NCBI GenBank assembly: GCA_028290305.1
Contig: JAQGKC010000146.1
Span: forward strand, 34,586 to 98,585
Reading direction: 5' to 3'
DNA length: 64,000 nucleotides
DNA from: Bradyrhizobium sp.
GTDB lineage: Bacteria > Pseudomonadota > Alphaproteobacteria > Rhizobiales > Xanthobacteraceae
Position 1 is the stretch's first letter. Every line of letters begins with the position of its first letter. A model generated the notes under the pieces. It saw only the letters and a program-made list of their open reading frames with translations, was not told the DNA's origin and made no database searches. Below, piece by piece: positions 6,736 through 17,258 of this stretch. The translations under genes and the position numbers were made by a program.

Positions 6736-7152
6736 CTAACCTCCGGACTTGCCCTGCAATTCGGTAAATCCGGCCGCCGCCTCCTGAACATCGGCGGGAA
6801 AATCCGACATTTCCTGGACCTGGCGAATTTCGATGATCTCATTATTGGAGGCCGGGCAACGCTTGGCCCAGGCGATGGCCTCCTCGCGCGACTTCACGTC
6901 GATCATCCAGTAGCCGCCGAGCACTTCCTTGGCCTCGGTGAAGGGACCGTCAGTAACGAGGGGCTTACCGCTCGCGAAGGAGACCCGGGCACCCATAGAC
7001 GGTGGGTGCAGGCCATCCAACGTGATCAGCACGCCGGCCTCTTTCAGAGCCTGATTATATTTCATCATCGCGGCCACACGCTCAGGATCCAGCTTAACGT
7101 CCGGCGGTGCGGTCTCGTAGCCCAAGGGAATCATCAGCATCATGAATCGCAT
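6736..7152 (-). CDS. DGPF/YCII-related protein (copy 1)
   Basis: A 138-residue YCII-related protein starting MRFMMLMIPLG at ATG 7152, with AAGGA nine bases before it. It contains the hallmark VTDGPFTEAKEVLGGYWMI (about residues 70-88), a form of the DGPF motif. Members are small cytoplasmic ferredoxin-like-fold proteins of undefined function, typically encoded beside ECF42 sigma factors. The related gene at 7293 lies immediately upstream in the same direction, separated by a palindromic repeat, so the two may be cotranscribed. Confidence 0.88.
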   Translation of the reverse strand: MRFMMLMIPLGYETAPPDVKLDPERVAAMMKYNQALKEAGVLITLDGLHPPSMGARVSFASGKPLVTDGPFTEAKEVLGGYWMIDVKSREEAIAWAKRCPASNNEIIEIRQVQEMSDFPADVQEAAAGFTELQGKSGG

Positions 7153-7183
7153 GGTCGTATGTCCTTGTTGATTTAAACCTGAT

Positions 7184-7277
7184 GTCATTCCGGAGCACGC
7201 GGAGCGCGAACCCGGAATCTCGCGCTGTATTCTCCAGATTCCGGGTTCAGCCCCTAATGGGGCTGCCCCGGAATGAC
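7184..7277. repeat. Imperfect palindromic (REP/BIME-like) element
   Basis: Outer arms GTCATTCCGG and CCGGAATGAC, inner perfect 13-bp arms GAACCCGGAATCT and AGATTCCGGGTTC. It can fold into one long hairpin. It lies between two DGPF genes and probably shapes or stabilises the mRNA. Confidence 0.8.
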
Positions 7278-7292
7278 AATGGATGGACTTGT

Positions 7293-7709
7293 CTACCTCT
7301 GCGCCCCCTGCGCGCGGAGGCGTTGTTCCTGCTCGCGCAATTCGGGCGTGAGCGCCTCGCCAAAATCCTCCGCGTCGAAAACCTGCCGTATCTCGATTTC
7401 AGCACCGCCGTCGAATGGCGCGCGTTTCATCCATTCAATCGCCTCGTCACGCGACTTGACCTGAATCAGCCAGAAGCCGGCCACGAGTTCGCTGGTTGCG
7501 CCGAAGGGGCCGCTGGTGACAGTGCGGTCCTTGCCGGAATATTTGATGCGCGCGCCTTTCGAACTCGGATGCAGGCCCTCACCCGCCAGCATGACGCCGG
7601 CCTTCACCATCTCTTCGTTGAATTTTCCCATCGCCGTCAATAATTCCGTGCTCGGCATCACGCCGGCTTCGCTATTCTTGTCGGCTTTCACAATCACCAT
7701 GAATCGCAT
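7293..7709 (-). CDS. DGPF/YCII-related protein (copy 2)
   Basis: A 138-residue paralogue of the product at 6736-7152, starting MRFMVIVKAD at ATG 7709 with GGAGG six bases upstream; a GTG one codon earlier is possible. The DGPF motif reads TSGPFGATSELVAGFWLI, so the Asp is replaced by Ser. An ECF42-type promoter motif (TGTCGG-N14-GTTCGTC) lies at 7805-7779, making this a probable target of the sigma factor encoded at 15574. Function of the protein itself is unknown. Confidence 0.88.
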   Translation of the reverse strand: MRFMVIVKADKNSEAGVMPSTELLTAMGKFNEEMVKAGVMLAGEGLHPSSKGARIKYSGKDRTVTSGPFGATSELVAGFWLIQVKSRDEAIEWMKRAPFDGGAEIEIRQVFDAEDFGEALTPELREQEQRLRAQGAQR

Positions 7710-7778: not shown

Positions 7779-7805
7779 GACGAACCGGATTTTACGGCAC
7801 CGACA
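7779..7805 (-). promoter_or_regulatory. Predicted ECF42-type promoter before DGPF copy 2
   Basis: On the minus strand TGTCGG (7805-7800), 14 nt, then GTTCGTC ending at 7779; 17 nt separate TGTCGG and CGTC. The pattern and spacing are identical at three other promoters in this window. The group's published preference, as I recall it, is TGTCGA and CG(A/T)C. Confidence 0.65.
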
Positions 7806-7861
7806 TAGCGATCGGAATTATTTCGGCCCCGTGGAATCCCACGGCCCGTGCCACGCGCCCT

Positions 7862-9067
7862 TCAATCGTCGATGGCCTGATAGGCCGAGGTCCAGAAATC
7901 GGTCAGCACGCGCGGCGGCTGTGGCGAATCCATCATTCGCTGGGTAAGCAAGATTCCCGTGAGATTCTCTTTGGGATCGGAATACCATGAGGTGCCGTAG
8001 CCCCCATCCCAGCCAAACCGGCCCGGTACGTTGTAGAGATCGTCACGCCGGGTGAAAACCGAGAGGCCCATGCCCCAGCCCCTGTTGTCGCCGAAGAATA
8101 TTTCGGAGCCCAGTTTCTGTTCCGATGTGAGCTGGTCGGTCGTCATCAGTTCGACCGACGGCCGCGACAGAATGCGTTCGCTTCCAAGGCGGCCGCCATT
8201 CAACATCATCTGCGCGAACGCATTGAAATCGTCGGCGGTCGAGACCAGCCCGGCGCTGCCGTTTTCAAAGACCGGCGGGTTCGAGAATTTGCCGGTGACG
8301 GGATCGTCGAACACTTTCAGCTTTTGCGTCGCATGGTCGCGGGCATAGCTGGTTGCGAACCGATCGCGCTTGGCCTCCGGCACGCTGAACGCGGTATCCT
8401 TCATGCCAAGCGGAGCGAAGATACGCTCGCGCAGGAATTCGCCGAACGTCGTGCCGGCTGCACGCGCGATCAATACGCCCAGGATTTCCGTCCCGCTGTT
8501 GTAAAGCCAGCGCTCGCCGGGCTGATAGAGCAGCGGCAGGCTGCCGTAACGCCTCATCAATTCGTCCGGCGGGAACGACGGAAATACCGGTCCGGGCGCG
8601 AAGCCTGCCTCGGCAATGGCTTTCTGGATCGGATAGCGGTCCGGAAACACCATGAGCATGCCGTAGCCCAGCCGGAAAGTGAGCAGATCACGCAGCGTGA
8701 TCGCGCGTTTGGCCGGCACGGTATCGTCGCTCGGCGCATCGATGGCGCGCAGCACCTTGCGGTCCGCCAGTTCCGGCAGCCACCAATCGACGGGATCATC
8801 GAGCCGTAATTTGCATTCCTCGACAAGGATCATCGCCGCGGCGGCGGTGACCGGCTTGGTCATCGAAGTGATGCGGAAGATGGTGTCGCGCCGCATCGGC
8901 GCACCGTCGATTGCGATTTTTCCGATCGCGTCGACATGAATCTCGCCGTGGCGGCTCACCAGCATCACCATACCGGGCATATCGCCCGCTTCGACGTGGC
9001 CCGCCATAGTGTCGTGCATGCGATCGAGGCGCGTTTTTGACAGCCCGTCGGCGCCGGTCATTTTCAT
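7862..9067 (-). CDS. Class C beta-lactamase-like serine hydrolase/esterase
   Basis: A 401-residue serine hydrolase of the beta-lactamase/penicillin-binding-protein fold. The nucleophile motif is SMTK in FRITSMTKPVTAAAAM (about residue 69), and the second motif is YNS in ERWLYNSGTEILG (about residue 190). There is no signal peptide, so a cytoplasmic esterase-like role (EstB type) is more likely than antibiotic resistance. ATG 9067 has AAGGA eight bases upstream. An ECF42-type promoter motif lies 42 bases before the start. Substrate unknown. Confidence 0.88.
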   Translation of the reverse strand: MKMTGADGLSKTRLDRMHDTMAGHVEAGDMPGMVMLVSRHGEIHVDAIGKIAIDGAPMRRDTIFRITSMTKPVTAAAAMILVEECKLRLDDPVDWWLPELADRKVLRAIDAPSDDTVPAKRAITLRDLLTFRLGYGMLMVFPDRYPIQKAIAEAGFAPGPVFPSFPPDELMRRYGSLPLLYQPGERWLYNSGTEILGVLIARAAGTTFGEFLRERIFAPLGMKDTAFSVPEAKRDRFATSYARDHATQKLKVFDDPVTGKFSNPPVFENGSAGLVSTADDFNAFAQMMLNGGRLGSERILSRPSVELMTTDQLTSEQKLGSEIFFGDNRGWGMGLSVFTRRDDLYNVPGRFGWDGGYGTSWYSDPKENLTGILLTQRMMDSPQPPRVLTDFWTSAYQAIDD

Positions 9068-9108
9068 CGTTTCGTTCCTTCAGAGATCAGCCACAGTCCC
9101 TGTGGGAC

Positions 9109-9135
9109 GACGAACCGGACCGCGCCGAACCGACA
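9109..9135 (-). promoter_or_regulatory. Predicted ECF42-type promoter before the serine hydrolase
   Basis: Minus strand TGTCGG (9135-9130), 14 nt, GTTCGTC ending at 9109. The motif is identical to those at 7779, 15340 and 17232; its end is 42 bases from the ATG at 9067. Confidence 0.65.
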
Positions 9136-9150
9136 CGCCAACCGGCTTTT

Positions 9151-9519
9151 CTATTGCTGCTGTTTCACGAACGCGTCATCCCTGTAGGTGGCGCCAAAAT
9201 ACACATCGATGCTGCGGACTTTATCGCCGTCGAAGCGAAAGAACTCGATGTTGCGGAATTCCTTGCCGTCATGGTTGCGGATTTTGTAAGTGATGAATGC
9301 CTCGGCGCCCTGTTCGAGGATTTTCTCGATGTCGAATGCGCCCATCCGCTCGCTGTTCGGCCAGCATTTCCTAAAATAAGCGTCCTTGTCGATGGCGTCG
9401 TCATACGGACTGGTGAAACGGAAGCCGTCGGTCAGCAATCGTTCGACGACGCCACGATCTTTTGACAGGTAGCCGGCATACATGCCCCGGATGATGGCGG
9501 ACTTGCTGTTGCTGCTCAT
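9151..9519 (-). CDS. SnoaL-like (NTF2 superfamily) protein, copy A
   Basis: A 122-residue single-domain protein with the NTF2/SnoaL pattern: helical start (MYAGYLSKDRGVVERLL), FTSPYDD, and a strand-rich end with FFRFDGDKVRSIDVYFGA. Such proteins are polyketide-cyclase-like or ligand-binding folds, often of unknown activity. Its start overlaps the stop of the upstream GST gene by 4 bases (ATGA), so translation is coupled. It is closely similar to the protein at 10191-10562 on the other side of the GST gene. Confidence 0.85.
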   Translation of the reverse strand: MSSNSKSAIIRGMYAGYLSKDRGVVERLLTDGFRFTSPYDDAIDKDAYFRKCWPNSERMGAFDIEKILEQGAEAFITYKIRNHDGKEFRNIEFFRFDGDKVRSIDVYFGATYRDDAFVKQQQ

Positions 9520-10175
9520 GCCGATGCCTCCTTCGGGAACATATGGAAATAAGGTTCTGCTTCCTTGACCACGCGGGAGAAGGATGAGCGCGCCATCAGG
9601 CGGGCGAAGTAGGCGGCAACGTTCTTATGGCTATCGCCGAACGGCATCACCTGATTGGCGTAGAACAATGAAGGCGCGGCGGCGCAATCGGCGAGACTGA
9701 ACACATCGCCCATCGCCCAAGCCTGGCTTGCCATCTCGCTGTCGATCATTCGATAGGAAGTCTGCAGCCGCGCTTTGGCTTCCTCGACCCCATGCGGATC
9801 CTTTCTGTCCTGCGGGCGCATTCTATCGCCGACGATCTTTTGCATCGGTTCATGCACATAAAGGTCGTAGAAACGATCGCGCAGCCGCGTCTGCCATGCG
9901 CGGGAAAAATCCGCGGGGACGAACAGCGTCTTGCCCGGGTAATACCGATCGAGATACTCGATGATGACGGTCGATTCCGGGATGATCTGCTTCCGCGTAT
10001 CGTCACCCAGCACCGGAAACTTGCCGATCGGCCACAGCTTCAATAGCGCCGCGCGCTCGCTCTCGTTGGAGAGATCGACCATATTGGGCGTGAACGGCGT
10101 ATCGTTCTCATACAGAGCGATCAGCACCTTTTGGCAGTACGATGCCAGCGGGTGGAAATGCAACGTGAGGGACAT
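9516..10175 (-). CDS. Glutathione S-transferase family protein
   Basis: A 219-residue GST. The N-terminal thioredoxin-like domain has FHPLASYCQKVLIALYE (Ser/Cys near residues 12-14) and PIGKFPVL with the cis-Pro, followed by PESTVIIEYLDRYYP for glutathione gamma-glutamyl binding. The C-terminal helical domain contains FSLADCAAAPSLFYA, the N-capping region. It probably conjugates or reduces an electrophile; the substrate is unknown. It sits between two SnoaL paralogues in one minus-strand operon beginning at 10562, divergent from an HxlR regulator. Confidence 0.92.
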   Translation of the reverse strand: MSLTLHFHPLASYCQKVLIALYENDTPFTPNMVDLSNESERAALLKLWPIGKFPVLGDDTRKQIIPESTVIIEYLDRYYPGKTLFVPADFSRAWQTRLRDRFYDLYVHEPMQKIVGDRMRPQDRKDPHGVEEAKARLQTSYRMIDSEMASQAWAMGDVFSLADCAAAPSLFYANQVMPFGDSHKNVAAYFARLMARSSFSRVVKEAEPYFHMFPKEASA

Positions 10176-10190
10176 TCAGATGGCTCCGGA

Positions 10191-10562
10191 TTAGTTTTCG
10201 CTCTGCCTGACGAAGACGCCATTTTCGTAGGTGGCGCCGAAATAGACGTCGATGCGTTTGATCCTGTCGCCTTCGAAGGTGAAGAACTCGGTATTCCGGA
10301 AACTCCTTCCGCCTTTGGCCGTGCATCGGTAGGTCACAAAGGCCTCGTCGCCCTCGACGAAGATTTTTTCCAGCTCGTGCCGTTCGATCCAGTCGGTGCT
10401 GCGCCAGCACCGCGCGAAATATGTCGCCTTGTCGATCCCGTCGTCATAGGGACTCGTGAAGTGGAAATCTTCAGTGAGAAAATCCTCAACGGCCTTGCGG
10501 TCGTTCGAGAGGTAGGCGGCAAACATAGCACCGATGATCTCGGGCTTGCCTGGTGCGGCCAT
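10191..10562 (-). CDS. SnoaL-like (NTF2 superfamily) protein, copy B
   Basis: A 123-residue paralogue of the product at 9151-9519; both share FTSPYDD, ID(K)xxYF, and RIKRIDVYFGATY-like ends. It is the first gene of the SnoaL-GST-SnoaL operon, 15 bases before the GST start, and is divergent from the HxlR gene at 10737 with a palindromic operator candidate between them. This suggests that operon is the regulator's target. Activity unknown. Confidence 0.85.
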   Translation of the reverse strand: MAAPGKPEIIGAMFAAYLSNDRKAVEDFLTEDFHFTSPYDDGIDKATYFARCWRSTDWIERHELEKIFVEGDEAFVTYRCTAKGGRSFRNTEFFTFEGDRIKRIDVYFGATYENGVFVRQSEN

Positions 10563-10635
10563 GTCGATTCTCCCCGATGGTTCTTAAAGCAAGGCTGAAT
10601 TACCGGATTTCGCTGCGCTTCATCCGGACGATTTT

Positions 10636-10660
10636 AACCAATTGCGTTTTGCAACTGGTT
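10636..10660. promoter_or_regulatory. Predicted HxlR operator
   Basis: Inverted repeat AACCAATTGC-GTTTT-GCAACTGGTT, nine of ten arm positions matching, in the gap between the divergent SnoaL-GST-SnoaL operon and the HxlR gene. A related GTTGCA/TGCAAC inverted repeat occurs in front of the second HxlR gene at 54170-54212. Confidence 0.6.
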
Positions 10661-10736
10661 GTATGTTGGGATAACTGATGCGATATTGCAAGCGGTTTTT
10701 TCGTGGCGTTTCCGCCGCGTGTCCTGGACATCGCCG

Positions 10737-11255
10737 ATGACCGACTACCAACGCTCCGGCTGCCCGATCAATCTCACGCTGGAGGTGGTCGGCGATAAAT
10801 GGAGCTTGCTCGTCATCCGCGACATGATGTTCGGCAACCGCCGACATTTCCGTGAGCTGCTGACCAAATCCGACGAAGGCATTTCCTCCAACATCCTCGC
10901 CGACCGGCTGAAGACGCTGCTCGAGCAGGGCATCCTCACCAGGGAGGACGACCCCAGCCACAAGCAAAAGGGAATCTACTCGCTTACCGAACAGGGCATC
11001 GAATTGTTGCCGATCCTCGCCCAGATGTCGGGCTGGGGATATAAATATCTTCCCGTCAGCGAAGAGCTCGGCATCCGTGCCAAGCTGCTGAGCGAAGGCG
11101 GCCCGAACATGTGGGCCGAGTTCATGGACGAATTGCGCGAGACCCATCTCGGCGCGAAGCGAAGGAAAAAATCCGGCCCGTCCGTCGGTGAGAAACTGCA
11201 GAAGGCGTATGAGAAGGTCGTGAAGCGGAAAAAATTTTCCAGCCCACCTCCGTAA
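10737..11255 (+). CDS. HxlR family transcriptional regulator
   Basis: A 172-residue winged-helix regulator of the HxlR family. It carries the typical N-terminal CP(I) dipeptide (RSGCPINLTLEVVGDKWSLLVIRDMMFG), the recognition part FRELLTKSDEGISSNILADRLKTL and the wing LTREDDPSHKQKGIYSLTEQG. The lone Cys near residue 9 is the redox- or electrophile-sensing position in several members. ATG 10737 gives the standard N-terminus; the upstream ATG at 10659 overlaps the operator. A long basic tail (about residues 140-172) is unusual. It probably controls the divergent GST operon. Confidence 0.9.
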   Translation: MTDYQRSGCPINLTLEVVGDKWSLLVIRDMMFGNRRHFRELLTKSDEGISSNILADRLKTLLEQGILTREDDPSHKQKGIYSLTEQGIELLPILAQMSGWGYKYLPVSEELGIRAKLLSEGGPNMWAEFMDELRETHLGAKRRKKSGPSVGEKLQKAYEKVVKRKKFSSPPP

Positions 11256-11415
11256 GAGCGCGGATGAAACGCTGCTGGAATCTGCGCAGCATCACCGGCC
11301 ATTGCTCGCGCAGGATGCGAAACAACGCATAGAGGGCGCGGGCGCCGGCATTGCCGAGACACGGTCTACGGCAACGCGCTATAAGACCCATTCGATAGCA
11401 ACAAGGCGGATGGGA

Positions 11416-12204
11416 ATGACCGATAAACTTAAAAAAGTCGCGCTGGTGACCGGCGCCGCGCGTGGCATCGGGCTCGCGGTGGCGAAACGGTTTCTCGCCG
11501 AGGGCTGGCGCGTGGCGCTGCTCGATATCGAGAGTGAATTGTTAGGGAACAGCGTGGAGACACTGGCCGATGCCGGCAATACGCTGGGGCTGCATTGTGA
11601 CGTCTCTGATGCAAGCGCGGTCGCGAGCGCATTCGCCGAAATCGACCGGCGCTTCGGCAGGCTTGACGCGCTGGTCAACAACGCCGGCATCGCGGTGTTC
11701 GCGCCGCTGCTGGAGACCTCGGATGAGGATTGGAGCCGGGTGCTGGCCGTCAACCTCACCGGGCCGTTCCTTTGCACCAAGGCGGCCGCGCCGCTGATGC
11801 GCGAACATGGCGGCGGCGCGGTCGTCAATATCACGTCGATTTCGGCGGTACGCGCCTCGACGCTGCGCTCGGCTTACGGCACCAGCAAAGCCGGGCTTGC
11901 ACATCTCACCAAGCAACTCGCCGTCGAACTGGCGTCGCTCGGCATTCGCGTCAACGGCGTCGCGCCCGGTCCGGTCGAGACCGCGATGGCGAAAGCCGTC
12001 CACACGCCGGAAATCCGCGCCGATTATCACGACGCGATCCCGCTCAACCGCTACGGCCTCGAAGAAGAATTGGCGGAGGCGGTGTTCTTTTTATGCAGCG
12101 ACCGCTCAAGCTACATCACCGGACAGATTCTTGCCGTCGATGGCGGCTTCGACGCCGCCGGTATCGGATTGCCGACACTGCGGGGTGAGAGACGGAACGG
12201 GTAG
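11416..12204 (+). CDS. Short-chain dehydrogenase/reductase (SDR)
   Basis: A 262-residue classical SDR: cofactor motif TGAARGIG (about residues 12-19), NNAG near residue 90, catalytic Ser in ITSIS, and YGTSK near residue 156. It ends with GQILAVDGGFDAAG, typical of FabG-like enzymes. Asp near residue 37 (LLDIES) after the second strand suggests NAD preference. ATG 11416 is chosen over ATG 11410; GGCGG lies just upstream. No substrate can be assigned. Two hairpins follow the gene. Confidence 0.9.
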   Translation: MTDKLKKVALVTGAARGIGLAVAKRFLAEGWRVALLDIESELLGNSVETLADAGNTLGLHCDVSDASAVASAFAEIDRRFGRLDALVNNAGIAVFAPLLETSDEDWSRVLAVNLTGPFLCTKAAAPLMREHGGGAVVNITSISAVRASTLRSAYGTSKAGLAHLTKQLAVELASLGIRVNGVAPGPVETAMAKAVHTPEIRADYHDAIPLNRYGLEEELAEAVFFLCSDRSSYITGQILAVDGGFDAAGIGLPTLRGERRNG

Positions 12205-12253
12205 AACCTCGCCTGCGGGCGCTTGCGGCCGCGGTTGACCATCATTGCGCGAA

Positions 12254-12303
12254 TGGAAATGCTGACATTTCCATGACTGCATCCGTCGCGACGGACGGAT
12301 GCA
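12254..12303. repeat. Two adjacent hairpins after the SDR gene
   Basis: TGGAAATG-CTGA-CATTTCCA (12254-12273) and TGCATCCGTC-GCGACG-GACGGATGCA (12278-12303) are perfect inverted repeats back to back. Neither has a T-run, so they are not classic terminators. They may be mRNA-end structures or part of an unrecognised small RNA. Confidence 0.5.
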
Positions 12304-12376
12304 AAAATAGTATTTGTCCGCCACCATATGCGGCTGTACAACTCGGCAGCTTCTTCTCCAGTGTGAAGAGGCTAGC

Positions 12377-12688
12377 ATGAACGACTTGCACGACTTGTAT
12401 ACGTGGCTCTCCCAACAGCACCACGGCTTGCGGACCTTCCGCACTTTTCAGCAAAAACTTGACATTCTAAGCAGGGACAACCCGGAGCAACGCGCTTTGT
12501 GCCGGGTGCTGAGTGGTATCGTCGGCAGCTACATCGAAACCTTTGATGAAGAGCCGTTGCCCGTTGCGGTCGCCGACCACGCTTACCGTCGCCTGCTCGA
12601 TTTGGTGGCAAGCCTGGATTTCCGCGCCAGTGCGGACCGTCGGCTGGCCGACATCAATCGTGTCGCGGCCTGCGATTTGCGGCGTTGA
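12377..12688 (+). CDS. Hypothetical protein, 103 aa
   Basis: A 103-residue soluble protein of no family I recognise, rich in Leu, Arg and Asp and predicted mainly helical (LRTFRTFQQKLDILSRDNPEQRALCRVLSGIVGSY segment at 17-50). ATG 12377 has GAAGAGG upstream; an upstream ATG at 12314 would run through the intergenic region. Codon use resembles its neighbours. It stands alone between the SDR hairpins and a secreted protein gene. Confidence 0.6.
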   Translation: MNDLHDLYTWLSQQHHGLRTFRTFQQKLDILSRDNPEQRALCRVLSGIVGSYIETFDEEPLPVAVADHAYRRLLDLVASLDFRASADRRLADINRVAACDLRR

Positions 12689-12775
12689 TCGCGAAACCCT
12701 GCGGGGGATGCCTTGTCGCGTGACCCGCCCCTGACTAGTTGTTCCAGTCATCGGGGCGTCAAGGAGCCGCTCGCC

Positions 12776-13216
12776 ATGCAAAAGACCGGCTTAAAGATTT
12801 ATCTTGCGACGGTGCTATTGTGCGCCCTCGCCTTGTCGCCGGCGCACGCCGAGGTACGGATTCTCGCCAGTCCGGGCGGCGAGGTCGGCCCGTTCCTGGA
12901 TCTGTTCGAACGCGTGCGCGATACCGGCGAACGCGTCGTCATTGACGGACCCTGCCTGTCGGCCTGCACGTTGGTGCTGAGCGTGGTGCCGAGTGACCGC
13001 ATCTGCGTGACCCGCCGGGCGATACTGGGATTTCACGCCGCGCGATCGGTCGACAGGCGCGGCCGGATGTATGCCGAGCCGGAAGCGTCCGAGCTGGTGC
13101 TGGAGGCTTATCCCGCCGCGGTGCGGGGCTGGATCAGCCGCCGCGGCGGATTGACCTCGCGCCTGCTGTTGCTGCGAGGGCGCGAGCTCGCGGCGATCTA
13201 TCCGAGGTGCCGATAA
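12776..13216 (+). CDS. Secreted small ClpP-like periplasmic protein (COG3904-like)
   Basis: A 146-residue protein with a cleavable signal peptide ending near residue 25 (ALSPAHA). The mature part resembles the minimal ClpP/crotonase-like periplasmic proteins of Rhizobiales: a first strand (VRILASPGGEVGPFLDLF), then GPCLSACTLVL with the Ser in the nucleophile position near residue 60, and LGFHAARS with the His about 26 residues later. Four Cys residues in the mature part (CLSAC, RIC, RCR) could form disulphides. Whether it is a protease is not established. Confidence 0.65.
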   Translation: MQKTGLKIYLATVLLCALALSPAHAEVRILASPGGEVGPFLDLFERVRDTGERVVIDGPCLSACTLVLSVVPSDRICVTRRAILGFHAARSVDRRGRMYAEPEASELVLEAYPAAVRGWISRRGGLTSRLLLLRGRELAAIYPRCR

Positions 13217-13351
13217 GCGATCGACCGTTCATCAGGCAGTGGCCCTAGAGCATTGAAATTCTTCTTGCCGCCGGGATTGTCGAAGCAATTCGCGTTTTCG
13301 TCCGAATCCTTCGCTGGCGCAGCATGACCTTTCCAGCTCAAACGCCTAGGT

Positions 13352-13383
13352 TGTACGGCGCGGCGATGGTCCGGCGCCGTACA
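13352..13383. repeat. Inverted repeat before the glycine-rich protein gene
   Basis: Perfect 10-bp arms TGTACGGCGC and GCGCCGTACA with a 12-nt loop, about 40 bases upstream of the start at 13424. It could be an operator or a leader hairpin; no T-run follows. Confidence 0.5.
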
Positions 13384-13423
13384 CACCGCTCAAACTCAAC
13401 ACCGGATCGGGGAGTGTTACGTC

Positions 13424-13717
13424 ATGTCGGGAATGCTCATCAATCTGATCATCCAGATCATCAGCGGCGCCGTCGGCGGAAATGTCGCCGCGGGCGCAGC
13501 CAAGAATATCGATCTCGGTACGCTTGGAAACACCATCGCGGGCGCAGTTGGCGGCGGCATCGGGGGACAGATCCTCGGCATGCTGATTCCATTGCTCGCC
13601 AATACAGCCTCGACGCCGGATATCGGCAGCATCATCGGTCAGGTGGCCGGCGGCGGCGTTGCGGGTGCCGTTCTCACGGCGATCGTCGGCGCCATCAAGA
13701 ACAAGTCAGCAGCCTGA
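13424..13717 (+). CDS. Glycine-rich hydrophobic small protein, 97 aa
   Basis: A 97-residue protein made almost entirely of Gly/Ala/Ile/Leu segments (LIIQIISGAVGGNV, NTIAGAVGGGIGGQILGMLIPLLA, IIGQVAGGGVAGAVLTAIVGAI) and a short Lys-rich C-terminus. It resembles a small conserved rhizobial protein of unknown function; its composition recalls membrane-inserting glycine-zipper proteins. ATG 13424 follows GGGAGTG. No immunity or transport gene is adjacent, so a bacteriocin role is not supported. Confidence 0.65.
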   Translation: MSGMLINLIIQIISGAVGGNVAAGAAKNIDLGTLGNTIAGAVGGGIGGQILGMLIPLLANTASTPDIGSIIGQVAGGGVAGAVLTAIVGAIKNKSAA

Positions 13718-13870
13718 TCGATTCTGAGATCATGAGCGAAGCGGGGCACGAATAAGTGCCTCGCTGGAGCGCGTTAACAATCGTGAATGCGCTGAGACGC
13801 ACTCCGATGGGTGCGGCTTGCCGATGAGTGCGGCTTGCCGACCAATGCTGCCTGGCATGCCGATGAGAGA

Positions 13871-14281
13871 TCATCCCTCCATCGGGACGTTCACCATCCA
13901 GGGGATGCCGAACTGATCGACGCACATGCCGAATCCCTTGGAGAAGAAGGTCTTCGCGAACGGCATGTTGACACTGCCCCCTTCGCAAAGCGCGTTGAAC
14001 TTGCGCTCAGCCTCGGCGGGGTCGCCGACCGTCAGCGAGACCGAAAAGCCCTGCGGCTTATGGAAATGTTCCGGAGGCGCGTCCGACGCCATCAGCACTT
14101 GGCCGTCGATCGAAATCCTGCCGTGCATGATCTTCTTCTTCCGCTCGGGCGGCGACGGCATCGACTCCGGCGCCTCCTCATTTCGGAACATCGCCTCGAT
14201 CTTTGCGCCGAGCACCTTCTCGTAGAACTTGAACGCCGCTTCGCAATTGCCGTCGTAAAACAGATAGGGATTGATCTGCAT
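13871..14281 (-). CDS. VOC/PhnB-like glyoxalase-fold protein
   Basis: A 136-residue vicinal-oxygen-chelate protein of the PhnB (3-demethylubiquinone-type) group: INPYLFYDGNCEAAFKFYEKVLGA at the start, HGRISIDGQVLMASDAPPE in the middle and CVDQFGIPWMVNVP at the end. These proteins commonly accompany DGPF and SRPBCC genes in ECF-controlled clusters; the substrate is unknown. It is the last gene of the DoxX-SRPBCC-VOC operon, 39 bases after the SRPBCC gene, and its leader GGAGCAAGCC-ATG is identical to that of the DoxX gene. Confidence 0.88.
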   Translation of the reverse strand: MQINPYLFYDGNCEAAFKFYEKVLGAKIEAMFRNEEAPESMPSPPERKKKIMHGRISIDGQVLMASDAPPEHFHKPQGFSVSLTVGDPAEAERKFNALCEGGSVNMPFAKTFFSKGFGMCVDQFGIPWMVNVPMEG

Positions 14282-14320
14282 GGCTTGCTCCTTTGGGTGG
14301 TGGACGCTTGAAGTATCCGA

Positions 14321-14857
14321 TTATTTCTCGGTGAGCTGTTTCAGATTGGCGAGACCGATTTCAAAATCCTTGCCGACCATGTTGTCCACGTTCATGAACA
14401 GATGCATGAGCTTTCCCATGAACGGCAGCGGACCATGCATGAGCCACGTCAGATTGGTGGCATCGCCCTGCGGCAGCATTGTGAATTCGGCGGTGTTGTG
14501 TCCCTCGAACGGCTTAAAGAAATCGAGTTTGATGACGATTTTCGCCGGCATTGCCGCGTCCAGAATTTCCATGCGGCCGGAGCCGACATTGTTGTTGCCG
14601 TCCCACGCATAGACCGCGCCCTTGCCGCTCTCCGCGCCGCTATAGGTGCGCTTCATCGCGGGATCCTTTTTCTCATAAGGCGACCAGGTGACCCACTGAT
14701 GAAAATCGTTGATCAGCGGAAAGATTTTGTCCGGTGGCGCCTGGACCGTGGTCGCGCGCCGGACGCTGAACGTATCCGGCTTGGTGGCGGCGAGGATGAG
14801 GACGATCGCAATGGCGACCGCGAGTACGATGGCGACGATGGCAATGATCTCGAACAT
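14321..14857 (-). CDS. SRPBCC (START-like) protein with N-terminal membrane anchor
   Basis: A 178-residue protein starting MFEIIAIVAIVLAVAIAIVL, one membrane helix (residues 3-22), followed by an SRPBCC ligand-binding domain (RRATTVQAPPDKIFPLINDFHQWVTWSPYEKKDPAM and the usual GPLPFMGKLMHLF end). ATG 14857 puts the helix at the N-terminus; the upstream ATG 14893 adds 12 residues. It lies 37 bases after the DoxX gene and before a VOC gene, in a probable ECF42-driven operon. Ligand unknown. Confidence 0.85.
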   Translation of the reverse strand: MFEIIAIVAIVLAVAIAIVLILAATKPDTFSVRRATTVQAPPDKIFPLINDFHQWVTWSPYEKKDPAMKRTYSGAESGKGAVYAWDGNNNVGSGRMEILDAAMPAKIVIKLDFFKPFEGHNTAEFTMLPQGDATNLTWLMHGPLPFMGKLMHLFMNVDNMVGKDFEIGLANLKQLTEK

Positions 14858-14894
14858 GGAAAACTCCGTTTCTGTAAATAGGCGGCCAAGCAAG

Positions 14895-15308
14895 TCAACG
14901 CGACAGCGGGATCAGCTCGCGCAAGCTCCTGTAACGCAGCCAGAGCCCGCCCCACAGCATCAGACCGAGATAAAACCCGAACAGCACGTGGCTGAACAGC
15001 GGACTGCCGATCCGCACATGCGATGCCATGGCGCCGCCGAGATAGCCGGTCAGCAGGATTGCGCCGAGGATCGAGGTGGGCGGGATCGCATAAAGGATGG
15101 TGCAGGCGACAGTGATGAAGCCGAGGCTGCGTGCGAGAACTTCGCTCGAACCATAGCCCATCCGGTCCATCGTTTCGGTAACCACCGGCCATGGCACCAG
15201 CTTGATGGCGCCATCGAACAACAGAAACACGATAACGAGGCCGCTGAGGGCGCGGCCGGTCCAAAGCGCTGACTTGGAGACCGGTGCGGTGTCCGCAATC
15301 GTCGGCAT
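14895..15308 (-). CDS. DoxX family membrane protein
   Basis: A 137-residue protein with four membrane helices (around residues 15-35, 50-75, 77-95, 105-125), with AIKLVPWPVVTETMDRMGY in the first loop as in DoxX-like proteins. DoxX relatives affect quinone or thiol stress responses; the precise role here is unknown. ATG 15308 follows GGAGCAAGCC, the same leader as the downstream VOC gene. An ECF42-type promoter motif ends 32 bases before it, so it heads a probable sigma-controlled operon. Confidence 0.88.
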   Translation of the reverse strand: MPTIADTAPVSKSALWTGRALSGLVIVFLLFDGAIKLVPWPVVTETMDRMGYGSSEVLARSLGFITVACTILYAIPPTSILGAILLTGYLGGAMASHVRIGSPLFSHVLFGFYLGLMLWGGLWLRYRSLRELIPLSR

Positions 15309-15339
15309 GGCTTGCTCCATTGGTGATGCTCAACCCATA

Positions 15340-15366
15340 GACGAACGGGGCAAACGCAATCCGACA
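15340..15366 (-). promoter_or_regulatory. Predicted ECF42-type promoter before the DoxX-SRPBCC-VOC operon
   Basis: Minus strand TGTCGG (15366-15361), 14 nt, GTTCGTC ending at 15340; the spacing is the same as at the other three sites. Its end is 32 bases from the ATG at 15308. Confidence 0.7.
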
Positions 15367-15402
15367 GGGAGCGACAATATTTTTCGAATGCACTGCGGGA
15401 GC

Positions 15403-15540
15403 GTGCCCCGGATACCGCACAGCGCGCCGCGCCGACGGCGTGATGCGCTGCCGATCCGGGGTCCATGGCTGCACCACGAAAGTGTGGGTCCCGGCGCTGC
15501 GGCGCACCGCCGAAGAGGTGCTGCACCGCGTCCGGGACAC
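15403..15540. repeat. GTCCCGGACGCGGTGCAGC-type palindromic repeat
   Basis: Read on the minus strand it begins GTGTCCCGGACGCGGTGCAG and ends with a matching CCGGGGCAC, with internal GC-rich inverted repeats. The first 19 bases recur at the repeat between gap and pgk (36333-36437). Confidence 0.7.
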
Positions 15541-15573
15541 CGTGCCAGCGCGTTGCTCCCCTTAGGAAAGGGC

Positions 15574-16842
15574 CTACTTCCCTGCCTTCGCGCGCGGCTG
15601 GCTGTCGCGCATCAGGCGGTCGAGATGCATGCGGATATGGGCGGCTTCGGCCGAGGTGTTGGCGAGCGCGATGGCGCGGTCGAACGCGACGCGCGCTTCG
15701 TCGTTGCGGCCGAGTTGCATCAGGAACGCGCCACGCACGCCAAAGAAATGAAAATAATTCGAGAGCCGCTCACCCAACGGTTCGATCATCTCCAGCGCCG
15801 CCTCGGGGCCACGCACCTTGGACACCGCAACCGCGCGATTGAGCGTCACCACCGGCGACGGCTGCATGATTTCGAGCGTGCCATAAAGCAGATCGATCTG
15901 GGTCCAATCGGTGTCTTCGGGCTTGGCGGCGCGAGCATGCAGGGCTGCGATCGCCGCCTGAACCTGATAGGGCCCGCTGCGGTGATGGCGCATCGCCTTG
16001 TCGATCAGCGCCAGCCCCTCCGCGATCATCTTCTGATTCCACAACGAGCGATCCTGATCGTCGAGCAGCACCAACGCACCCTCGGCGTCAAAGCGCGCGG
16101 CGGCACGGGCATGCTGCAGCAGCAACAGCGCCGTCAGTCCCATGATCTCGGGTTCACTCTGGAACAGCCGCAGCAACAACCGCGCCAGGCGGATGGCCTC
16201 CTCGCACAGGGGTGCGCGGATCTCGGCGGTATCTCCGCTGGCGGAATAGCCTTCGTTGAAAATCAGATAGACCATCGCGGCGACCGAGGAGAGCCGCTCG
16301 GTGCGCTCCACGGCGCCTGGCGTCTCGAACGGCACATCGGCACCGGCAACGCGCGCTTTCGCCCGCGTGATACGCTGCTCCATCGCCGCCTCGGAGACCA
16401 GGAAGGCGCGCGCGATCTGCTTGACGGTCAGGCCGGAGACGATGCGCAGCGCCAGCGCGATCTGTTGCGTCGCCGGCAGATCGGGGTGGCAGCAGATGAA
16501 CAGCAGCCGCAGGATGTCGTCGCGATAATGCGAGCCGTCGAGCCGTTCGGCCAACGCGTCTTCGGCGTCGTCGAGATCGGAGATTGCCTCGTCCTCGGGC
16601 AGCGGCTCCTGTTTGCTGCGGCGCCTGATATCGTCGATCGCGACATTGCGCCCGACCATGATAAGCCACGCCGCGGGATCGCGTGGCGGGCCGTTTTGCG
16701 GCCAGCTTTTCAGCGCGCGCAAGGATGCGTTCTGGAACGCCTCCTCGGCGGTGTCGAGATTGCGGAAATAGCGCAGCAGCGCGCCGACCGCCTGGGGACG
16801 CGCGGAAGTCAGCGCCGCATCGATCCAGGCGGTGTCGGTCAC
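15574..16842 (-). CDS. ECF42-type RNA polymerase sigma factor with C-terminal TPR-like extension
   Basis: A 422-residue sigma factor: sigma-2 region (AVGALLRYFRNLDTAEEAFQNASLRALKSW, then DPAAWLIMVGRNVAIDDIRRR), sigma-4 region (TQQIALALRIVSGLTVKQIARAFLVSEAAMEQRITRAK), and a long helical extension (about residues 185-422) with TPR-like repeats such as VTLNRAVAVSKVRGPEAALEMI and ARVAFDRAIALA. This layout and the adjacent DGPF gene define the ECF42 group, which lacks a classical anti-sigma factor. GTG 16842 overlaps the DGPF stop (GTGA), so translation is coupled. It probably drives its own operon and three other in-window promoters. Confidence 0.92.
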   Translation of the reverse strand: MTDTAWIDAALTSARPQAVGALLRYFRNLDTAEEAFQNASLRALKSWPQNGPPRDPAAWLIMVGRNVAIDDIRRRSKQEPLPEDEAISDLDDAEDALAERLDGSHYRDDILRLLFICCHPDLPATQQIALALRIVSGLTVKQIARAFLVSEAAMEQRITRAKARVAGADVPFETPGAVERTERLSSVAAMVYLIFNEGYSASGDTAEIRAPLCEEAIRLARLLLRLFQSEPEIMGLTALLLLQHARAAARFDAEGALVLLDDQDRSLWNQKMIAEGLALIDKAMRHHRSGPYQVQAAIAALHARAAKPEDTDWTQIDLLYGTLEIMQPSPVVTLNRAVAVSKVRGPEAALEMIEPLGERLSNYFHFFGVRGAFLMQLGRNDEARVAFDRAIALANTSAEAAHIRMHLDRLMRDSQPRAKAGK

Positions 16843-17207
16843 GTCTTGAGGCTCCCCGGATTTAACAAGCCGACCGGGCGGATTTCGTAGGCTCCGCCGG
16901 GATTGGCCGCGCCGAGATCGCGCGCAACATCGAGCGCCTCGTCGAGATTCTTGCAATCGACGATGTAGAAGCCAAGCAATTGTTCCTTGGTTTCGGCAAA
17001 GGGGCCATCGATCACGACCGGCGGATTCTCCTTGCGCAGCGTGGTCGCCGCCGTCGTCGGCAACAGCCGCGCGACCGGGCCGAGCCGGCCCTGTTTGGTC
17101 AACTTGTCCTGGACAACGGCCAGTTTTTGCATGACCGCGGCGTCCTGTTCCTTGGTCCAGGAACCGACGGTGTCTTCATCGTGGTAGCAAAGAATGGTGT
17201 AGAGCAT
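16839..17207 (-). CDS. DGPF/YCII-related protein paired with the ECF42 sigma factor
   Basis: A 122-residue protein starting MLYTILCYHDED at ATG 17207, with the canonical motif IDGPFAETKEQLLGFYIVD (about residues 70-88). Its stop overlaps the GTG start of the sigma factor gene. Pairing with a DGPF gene is the hallmark of ECF42 loci; these proteins are thought to be targets or partners of the sigma factor, mechanism unknown. An ECF42-type promoter motif ends 25 bases before its start. The in-frame ATG at 17258 would overlap the promoter and is rejected. Confidence 0.92.
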   Translation of the reverse strand: MLYTILCYHDEDTVGSWTKEQDAAVMQKLAVVQDKLTKQGRLGPVARLLPTTAATTLRKENPPVVIDGPFAETKEQLLGFYIVDCKNLDEALDVARDLGAANPGGAYEIRPVGLLNPGSLKT

Positions 17208-17231
17208 GTGGAGTTCCTGTTTGATTGGAAG

Positions 17232-17258
17232 ACGAACGAGTATGCCCGGAGCCGACAT
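17232..17258 (-). promoter_or_regulatory. Predicted autoregulatory ECF42 promoter
   Basis: Minus strand TGTCGG (17258-17253), 14 nt, GTTCGTC ending at 17232, 25 bases before the DGPF start. It matches the three sites at 7779, 9109 and 15340 in sequence and spacing. Confidence 0.7.

What the first reader, a model, noticed from the sequence alone, without database searches (positions are those of the whole stretch)
7779..17258. A compact ECF42 sigma-factor regulon with a shared promoter motif
Four minus-strand promoters carry the same TGTCGG-N14-GTTCGTC pattern at 7779-7805, 9109-9135, 15340-15366 and 17232-17258, with identical 14-nt spacing. They precede a DGPF gene, a serine hydrolase, the DoxX-SRPBCC-VOC operon and the DGPF-ECF42 operon itself, and end 25-70 bases before the start codons. 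ECF42 factors are known to pair with DGPF proteins and to prefer TGTCGA and CG(A/T)C elements, as I recall. The hydrolase and DoxX operon would be new members of such a regulon.
Basis: partly seen in the sequence, partly recalled or inferred. Interest (0 to 1): 0.75.

Follow-up and report, generated by a model that had tools for sequence, protein, structure and literature searches.

The report
ECF42 sigma regulon with shared promoters
A soil bacterium related to Bradyrhizobium carries one promoter signature before a sigma-factor operon and several small, probably protective enzymes, and in many relatives the same signature also sits before a DNA-repair gene called Ku.

Summary
The fourth is at 17231-17257, one base off.

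The ECF42 reading is supported. Promoters of Sinorhizobium RpoE10 (ECF42) carry the same elements and spacing. In 80 ECF42 loci from Bradyrhizobium and relatives, 134 sites occur at N15 and 2 at all other spacings N11-N19; 127 of 134 precede homologues of the window's genes. S. meliloti already showed SRPBCC-like and glyoxalase-like targets, so the kind is known; hydrolase and DoxX are additions.

Two findings go further. Sixty Bradyrhizobium genomes carry one to four ECF42-type genes each; the 33 examined fall into three groups, each with its own code before its own operon. And the window's code stands before Ku (DNA end joining) in 39 of 60 genomes: 69 of 150 listed Ku genes, up to two mismatches, including the 51 best-scoring. 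Of 20 other Ku genes fetched, none has a proper site. No paper in the library joins ECF42 and end joining.

All is sequence evidence: no expression was measured, the window's genome is not held, and Ku control in its organism is untested.

The parts
17231..17257 (-). ECF42-type promoter (TGTCGG-N15-TTCGTC) of the DGPF-a/ECF42 operon (presumed autoregulatory site)
   Evidence: exact match; 61 of 79 DGPF-a homologues in related loci have a site with at most one mismatch
16839..17207 (-). DGPF-a, YCII-related protein (122 aa), first gene of the sigma operon
   Evidence: Pfam YCII 9.8e-22
15574..16842 (-). ECF42 sigma factor (422 aa, GTG start overlapping the DGPF-a stop as GTGA): sigma regions 2 and 4, DUF6596, weak TPR
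   Evidence: 80 relatives kept at 85-93% identity
15340..15366 (-). ECF42-type promoter of the DoxX-SRPBCC-VOC operon
   Evidence: exact match; 27 of 30 DoxX homologues have a site with at most one mismatch
14895..15308 (-). DoxX_2 family protein
   Evidence: Pfam DoxX_2 4.5e-17
14321..14857 (-). SRPBCC / polyketide-cyclase-like protein with a hydrophobic N-terminal stretch (seen by eye)
   Evidence: Pfam Polyketide_cyc2 6.4e-11
13871..14281 (-). VOC / PhnB-like glyoxalase-fold protein
   Evidence: Pfam 3-dmu-9_3-mt and Glyoxalase; below the NCBIfam cut-off for YjdN
9109..9135 (-). ECF42-type promoter of the serine hydrolase
   Evidence: exact match; 3 of 4 hydrolase homologues have a site with at most one mismatch
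7862..9067 (-). serine hydrolase of the beta-lactamase fold (401 aa); best NCBIfam match is a methyl acetate hydrolase, far below its cut-off
   Evidence: Pfam Beta-lactamase 1.3e-69
7779..7805 (-). ECF42-type promoter of the second DGPF gene
   Evidence: exact match; 19 of 20 DGPF-b homologues have a site with at most one mismatch
7293..7709 (-). DGPF-b, YCII-related protein
   Evidence: Pfam YCII 1.9e-15
6736..7188 (-). DGPF-c, YCII-related protein; no exact site of its own here, though 35 of 54 homologues have one with at most one mismatch; may be read through from 7779 (inference)
   Evidence: Pfam YCII 1e-22

Best explanation
The four sites are promoters for the ECF42 sigma factor encoded at 15574-16842. 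The factor, held or released through its own C-terminal DUF6596/TPR extension (from the literature, not shown here), reads TGTCGG at -35 and WTCGTC at -10 with exactly 15 bases between. It raises its own DGPF-ECF42 operon and a set of small enzymes and membrane proteins: DGPF/YCII proteins, serine hydrolase, DoxX, SRPBCC, VOC. These look suited to handling reactive or foreign small molecules. In many related Bradyrhizobium the same factor probably also drives particular Ku paralogues and an MFS transporter, so the response would join detoxification to DNA end joining. Shown: the sites, their spacing, their conservation, the genes behind them, and the different codes before the ECF42 paralogues. 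Inferred: that this sigma factor reads them, what triggers it, and what the enzymes do.
For: Exact sites against 0.02 expected. S. meliloti RpoE10 (ECF42): the sequences printed in Table 1 of PMC6180224 hold TGTCGG-N15-TTCGTC before SMc01151 (YCII)-rpoE10 and SMc01149-SMc01148, and TGTCGG-N15-TGCGTC before SMb20475; SMc01149-48 and SMb20475-74 rose on RpoE10 overexpression. In 80 ECF42 loci (1.5 Mb): 134 sites at N15 against 0, 0, 0, 0 at N11-N14 and 2, 0, 0, 0 at N16-N19; 127 of 134 within 170 nt before a homologue start. With at most one mismatch and the first -10 base free, 235 of 466 homologue upstream regions have a site, against a mean of 0.9 (largest 16) for 40 scrambled motifs. Genes inside operons lack it as expected: ECF42 0 of 80, VOC 2 of 75. 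Whole genomes: 369 hits in 60 genomes against 26 for the reversed pattern. Of 109 distinct sites looked at, 100 precede a gene of a recurring or recognisable family (domains of 20 representatives). Among the first genes behind these sites no other sigma gene was seen; second genes were not examined. ECF42 paralogues have different codes before their own operons: TGTCGT-N15-TTCGAC in 25 of 28, TGTCGA-N15-ATCGTC in 2 of 2; of 30 fetched genome hits each, 14 and 11 precede an ECF42 operon.
Against: No transcription data exist here, and the window's genome is not held. In S. meliloti, overexpressing RpoE10 did not raise its own SMc01151 operon, whose motif overlaps the mapped start. Raw genome counts do not single out N15: in five genomes N12 to N18 gave 7, 32, 22, 27, 24, 21, 2. 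In one genome 15 of 17 hits at other spacings lie inside coding-like frames, but the same crude test also scored 4 of 6 N15 sites there, and 1 of the window's 4, as coding-like, since open frames can run upstream of the real starts. Eight of 109 sites look like noise or have no gene, and one has an inserted element behind it. The hybrid code TGTCGT-N15-TTCGTC was also above its reversed control, 66 against 33. Enzyme roles are guesses from fold families.
Confidence: 0.87

Rival explanations
1. The sites belong to another ECF sigma factor of the genus (EcfG/ECF15, EcfF/ECF16, ECF26, ECF41), or are shared with one, and ECF42 is only one of the genes read.
For: Ku sites carry a constant GGAAC inside TGTCGGAAC, which resembles the -35 of general-stress promoters (recalled); the S. 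meliloti ECF41 promoter also begins with TGTC.
Against: Spacing does not fit: where the Ku sites have CGTT, GGAAC stands 10 nt before it, against 16-17 in EcfG promoters (recalled). The EcfF consensus is GTAAC-based and the ECF26 consensus is GGAATA-based. The S. meliloti ECF41 site has TGTCAC. The only sigma gene seen behind these sites is the ECF42 of the window's group (its DGPF gene is the first gene), and most non-Ku targets have no GGAAC.
Confidence: 0.08
2. ECF42 controls the cluster and similar enzyme genes, but the Ku sites are read by something else that uses a similar sequence.
For: Ku sites have extra conserved bases (AAC after TGTCGG, TTGAATCC after TTCGTC). They are narrow in distribution: of 30 Ku loci fetched from the order, 3 have an exact site, two of them from genomes of the genus set and the third in G171 at 84% identity. 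Twenty-one of 60 genomes show no listed Ku with a site, among them G016, which has the window's four target genes in the same order.
Against: Both elements and the 15-nt spacing are those of the ECF42 operon's own promoter. Two DoxX promoters beside an ECF42 gene share the TTCGTCTTGAATCCG tail. Extra conserved bases are expected among paralogous Ku copies. The -10 variant ATCGTC of some Ku sites also occurs before an ECF42 operon of the same group (L088).
Confidence: 0.25
3. Chance or codon-driven matches.
For: At other spacings the same two hexamers occur about as often genome-wide.
Against: 0.02 expected in the window; 134 against 2 at other spacings in ECF42 loci; position before starts and coherent gene families.
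Confidence: 0.02

Closest known systems
RpoE10 (ECF42) of Sinorhizobium meliloti and its targets (PMC6180224; passages and section 12 seen)
   Same: YCII gene followed by an ECF42 gene, same TGTCGG-N15-TTCGTC elements, targets with hydrophobic-ligand and glyoxalase-like domains
   Different: In what I saw, no serine hydrolase, DoxX or Ku target is reported; its own operon did not rise on overexpression; only six genes responded
ECF42 factors of Streptomyces venezuelae (Liu et al. 2018, Wu et al. 2019; not held, known here from passages of the reviews PMC8999054 and PMC8103513)
   Same: C-terminal TPR extension needed for activity, YCII neighbour, control proposed through protein interaction
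   Different: Motif TGTCGA with CG(A/T)C and mainly DGPF targets are recalled, from no call; the window's code is TGTCGG / TTCGTC
ECF-10 of Pseudomonas putida (named in passages of PMC8999054 and PMC6180224)
   Same: ECF42 group, linked to oxidative stress, antibiotic response and biofilm
   Different: Its regulon and promoter were not compared here
Stress-inducible Ku genes of S. meliloti under RpoE2 (Dupuy et al. 2019; not held, seen only as a citation in PMC9069715; the RpoE2 link is recalled)
   Same: Ku paralogues placed under an alternative sigma factor
   Different: RpoE2 is an ECF15 general-stress factor; here the promoter code is that of ECF42

Membership tests
ECF42 sigma factors | Sigma-70 region 2 and region 4 of the ECF type | tested here: met
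   Sigma70_r2 6.3e-12, Sigma70_r4_2 3e-10; sigma70-ECF superfamily above cut-off in NCBIfam
ECF42 sigma factors | Long C-terminal extension with TPR repeats | tested here: met
   About 255 residues after region 4; DUF6596 5.3e-35; TPR_2 and TPR_1 match only below Pfam's cut-off, so the TPR part is weak
ECF42 sigma factors | DGPF/YCII gene beside the sigma gene | tested here: met
   YCII protein whose stop overlaps the sigma start (GTGA)
ECF42 sigma factors | No anti-sigma gene nearby | tested here: met
   The named neighbours are YCII, DoxX_2, SRPBCC, VOC and, divergent, a 2-hydroxyacid dehydrogenase; no known anti-sigma family among them
ECF42 sigma factors | TGTCG-type -35 and CG(A/T)C -10 before its own operon | tested here: met
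   TGTCGG-N15-TTCGTC at 17231-17257; same in S. meliloti ECF42 promoters. The general consensus is recalled
ECF42 sigma factors | Transcription of the sites by the factor | not testable with these tools
   No expression or binding data
ECF42 regulon, Ku as member (Bradyrhizobium) | Site of the same code and spacing before Ku | tested here: met
   30 of the 30 best-scoring Ku loci: 21 exact, 7 with one, 2 with two mismatches; 69 of 150 listed Ku genes, 39 of 60 genomes, up to two mismatches
ECF42 regulon, Ku as member (Bradyrhizobium) | Found in the window's own organism | tested here: inconclusive
   None of the window's four sites precedes Ku and no genome is held; absent from G016, which has the same four targets in the same order

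The most novel reading that the evidence does not exclude
In Bradyrhizobium one of three groups of paralogous ECF42 sigma factors, told apart from its siblings by single bases in the -35 and -10 elements at a fixed 15-nt spacing, has captured dedicated Ku paralogues. A response to harmful small molecules would thus switch on DNA end joining together with detoxifying enzymes and export. Plant flavonoids may be one cue: a symbiosis-island Ku of B. japonicum (BJS_08160) is one of 15 genes reported as induced 10- to 43-fold by genistein (PMC9069715, passages seen; whether that Ku has the site was not tested).
Probability: 0.55. Interest if true: 0.75.

Novelty: new variant of a known kind. Interest (0 to 1): 0.57.

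Why it matters
ECF42 factors are widespread, but their targets and cues are little known. This gives a defined set of likely targets across many genomes, and a separate promoter code for each of three groups of paralogues, thus a direct test of how sister sigma factors keep apart. If Ku is a true target, error-prone end joining in soil and root bacteria is tied to chemical stress by a route other than the general stress response, which bears on how these genomes mutate and take up foreign DNA.

Tried and rejected
A raw spacing test over whole genomes failed to single out N15, because other spacings are as frequent and mostly fall in coding sequence. The crude coding test could not judge N15 sites. 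The hybrid code TGTCGT-N15-TTCGTC gave 66 hits in 59 genomes against 33 for the reversed control, G001 left out because one repeated sequence accounts for its 52 hits. The hybrid TGTCGG-N15-TTCGAC was not run. EcfG, EcfF, ECF26 and ECF41 were considered as readers of the Ku sites and set aside on spacing or sequence. Absence of ECF42 could not serve as a test, since all 60 genomes have at least one DUF6596 gene. In 150 genomes of the order, 94 have no exact site. Of the 30 loci fetched automatically there, most look like chance by eye; L364, L369 and L370 look like targets. Of 20 further sites that I chose, mostly from genomes with several hits, 17 precede DGPF, VOC, DUF1428-like, transporter-like or other enzyme-like genes by eye, and none precedes Ku. 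Three distant Ku loci have a near site 136-138 nt upstream of the start; not followed. The B. japonicum start-site paper (PMC4842269) has no occurrence of TGTCGG or end-joining in its main text.

Rows dropped: 122 sites in the loci were reduced to 109 by removing identical ones; four fetched loci (L115-L118) were left out of that call by mistake and looked at. In one search matches covering under 60% of a query, and genes too near a locus edge, were dropped.
Full report
OBSERVATION. The four sites are real. A search for TGTCGG-N14-GTTCGTC finds them exact at 7779-7805, 9109-9135, 15340-15366 and 17231-17257, all on the minus strand. Written as TGTCGG-N15-TTCGTC there are 4 matches and 0.02 expected, at most 1 in any of 100 shuffles. 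The last coordinate in the finding is off by one. Read against the sequence, the sites end 69, 41, 31 and 23 nt before the starts of DGPF-b, the hydrolase, DoxX and DGPF-a.

GENES. Pfam names them as YCII (three DGPF proteins), Beta-lactamase fold, DoxX_2, Polyketide_cyc2 (SRPBCC), VOC/PhnB-like and an ECF sigma factor with DUF6596 and a weak TPR. The sigma gene starts with a GTG that overlaps the DGPF-a stop. The 80 relatives kept are 85-93% identical, nearly all from Bradyrhizobium records. DNA of the cluster is about 78-83% identical to the 14 best related loci.

WHAT READS THE SITES. For the S. meliloti ECF42 factor RpoE10, the printed promoter sequences hold TGTCGG-N15-TTCGTC before SMc01151 (YCII)-rpoE10 and before SMc01149-SMc01148, and TGTCGG-N15-TGCGTC before SMb20475. 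SMc01149 has a hydrophobic-ligand domain; SMc01148 and SMb20475 are glyoxalase-like; these operons rose on overexpression, while SMc01151 did not. Same elements, same spacing, same kinds of gene. It also shows that much of the window's set is of a known kind.

CONSERVATION. In the 80 loci, TGTCGG and TTCGTC stand 15 nt apart 134 times, 16 nt apart twice, and at no other spacing from 11 to 19; 127 of the 134 lie within 170 nt before a homologue of a window gene. These loci were chosen because they hold ECF42. With at most one mismatch (first -10 base T or A): DGPF-a 61 of 79, DoxX 27 of 30, DGPF-b 19 of 20, DGPF-c 35 of 54, SRPBCC 40 of 73, GST 15 of 21, SnoaL-b 14 of 29, hydrolase 3 of 4, SnoaL-a 1 of 1, VOC 2 of 75, ECF42 0 of 80; VOC and ECF42 lie inside operons. 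With the first -10 base left free the total is 235 of 466, against a mean of 0.9 (largest 16) for 40 scrambled motifs.

WHOLE GENOMES. The window's genome is not held, so 60 genomes drawn from the genus of Bradyrhizobium barranii (L078, G001) were searched. All 60 have the exact pattern, 369 hits, against 26 for the reversed pattern. A caution: other spacings of the same hexamers are about as frequent genome-wide (N12 to N18 in the five genomes fully listed: 7, 32, 22, 27, 24, 21, 2); in one genome 15 of 17 such hits lie inside coding-like frames, but the same test also scored 4 of 6 N15 sites. I looked at 109 distinct N15 sites in fetched loci, not all 369. Ninety-four fall into recurring families: DGPF 18, Ku 13, SRPBCC 13, MFS transporter 11, an 85-110 aa protein with a signal-like start and no domain match 8, PhnB/VOC 7, GST 5 and 2, SnoaL 5 and 2, AHSA1 5, DoxX 3, DUF1428 2. 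Six more are single cases: RibD_C, DUF2277, hydrolase, aldo-keto reductase, VOC, AHSA1. Of the other nine, one precedes a transposase-like element inserted before a DGPF-type gene, and eight look like noise or have no gene (domains of 20 representatives). Four further fetched loci precede AHSA1-like, MFS, VOC-like and Ku genes.

THREE GROUPS, THREE CODES. Each of the 60 genomes has one to four DUF6596 genes. I examined 33 loci, grouped by identity to the window's factor and by N-terminal sequence, not by a tree. Three of the window's group (84-89% identical) have TGTCGG-N15-WTCGTC, 25 of 28 of a second group (42-48%) have TGTCGT-N15-TTCGAC, and 2 of 2 of a third (40-41%) have TGTCGA-N15-ATCGTC upstream. 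Genome searches for the second and third codes gave 162 against 33 and 99 against 7. Of 30 fetched loci for each, 14 and 11 stand before an ECF42 operon; most others look like background, though one second-code site stands before an alpha/beta-hydrolase-like gene. So, as far as examined, the window's group is the one with a dispersed set of targets. Residues in the regions expected to read the -10 and -35 elements differ between the groups (only two sequences stand for the third group; region assignment is mine).

KU. The 30 best-scoring Ku loci all have TGTCGGAAC-type sites just before the gene: 21 exact cores, 7 with one and 2 with two mismatches. Among the 13 Ku sites the start codon is 33-38 nt downstream in 12; the thirteenth (L188) precedes a Ku gene that is broken by a frame change. 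In a coordinate match, 69 of 150 listed Ku genes (the list was cut; more exist) have the extended motif with up to two mismatches, including all of the first 51, in 39 of 60 genomes; of 136 motif hits, 55 of 59 exact, 11 of 19 with one and 3 of 58 with two mismatches stand before a listed Ku. Hits with two mismatches are thus mostly something else; some precede DoxX and DGPF genes of the cluster. Twenty Ku genes without such a hit were fetched: 19 have nothing better than three mismatches and one has a decayed site with two; one of the 19 has only 114 nt of upstream sequence. In a tree of these 50 proteins the label is clustered, five changes against 15 in shuffles, but only 7 of 42 inner branches are well supported and near-copies make the clustering weak evidence. 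Of 30 Ku loci from the order, 3 have an exact site: two from the genus set and G171 at 84% identity; an 80% identical Ku in G202 has none.

LITERATURE. No paper in the library holds both ECF42 and end joining; nine hold ECF42 with sigma factor. Most subscription papers are not held, so absence from print is not shown. A symbiosis-island Ku of B. japonicum is one of 15 genes reported as induced by genistein (PMC9069715, passages); its promoter was not checked here. Review passages describe control of ECF42 through its TPR extension and suggest a role for the YCII partner (PMC8999054).

JUDGEMENT. As promoters for this ECF42 factor: very likely. As a kind: known, with S. meliloti as precedent. 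What is added is the wider set of sites, the three codes and the Ku link, which rests on sequence alone and may not apply to the window's own organism. On checking, I lowered the main confidence from 0.88 to 0.87 and interest from 0.58 to 0.57, since second genes behind the sites were not examined and the groups rest on 33 loci.

Noticed in passing
window 9151-10562 (-) and 10659-11255 (+): A SnoaL-GST-SnoaL operon lies beside a divergent HxlR-type regulator and has no exact ECF42 site here, although many related GST and SnoaL genes elsewhere do.
   Followed up: partly
window 7183-7278: Between two DGPF genes sit nested inverted repeats (15-nt and 13-nt arms), perhaps a dispersed intergenic repeat.
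   Followed up: no
L084 (G001:C1:8419335-8419361): A transposase-like element follows the ECF42-type site and separates it from a DGPF-type gene.
   Followed up: no
L161 and seven similar loci: A conserved small protein with a signal-like start follows an ECF42-type site, in most cases about 149 nt downstream; the one tested (L161) has no Pfam or NCBIfam match.
   Followed up: partly
G003:C1:5864744 and many other genomes: An element TGTCGTTTTTATCGACACTTATTCGAC recurs across genomes and matches the second ECF42 code, but may be a different regulatory element.
   Followed up: no
L328, L332, L333: Three distant Ku genes have a near-match to the ECF42 site, with one or two mismatches, 136-138 nt upstream of the start.
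   Followed up: no
L273; same site sequence in G026, G028 and G032: The second ECF42 code stands before an alpha/beta-hydrolase-like gene in L273, a possible further target of the second group; the other copies were not looked at.
   Followed up: no
L188 (G026:C1:4073778): A Ku gene behind an exact site is broken: its start lies in one frame and the rest in another.
   Followed up: no
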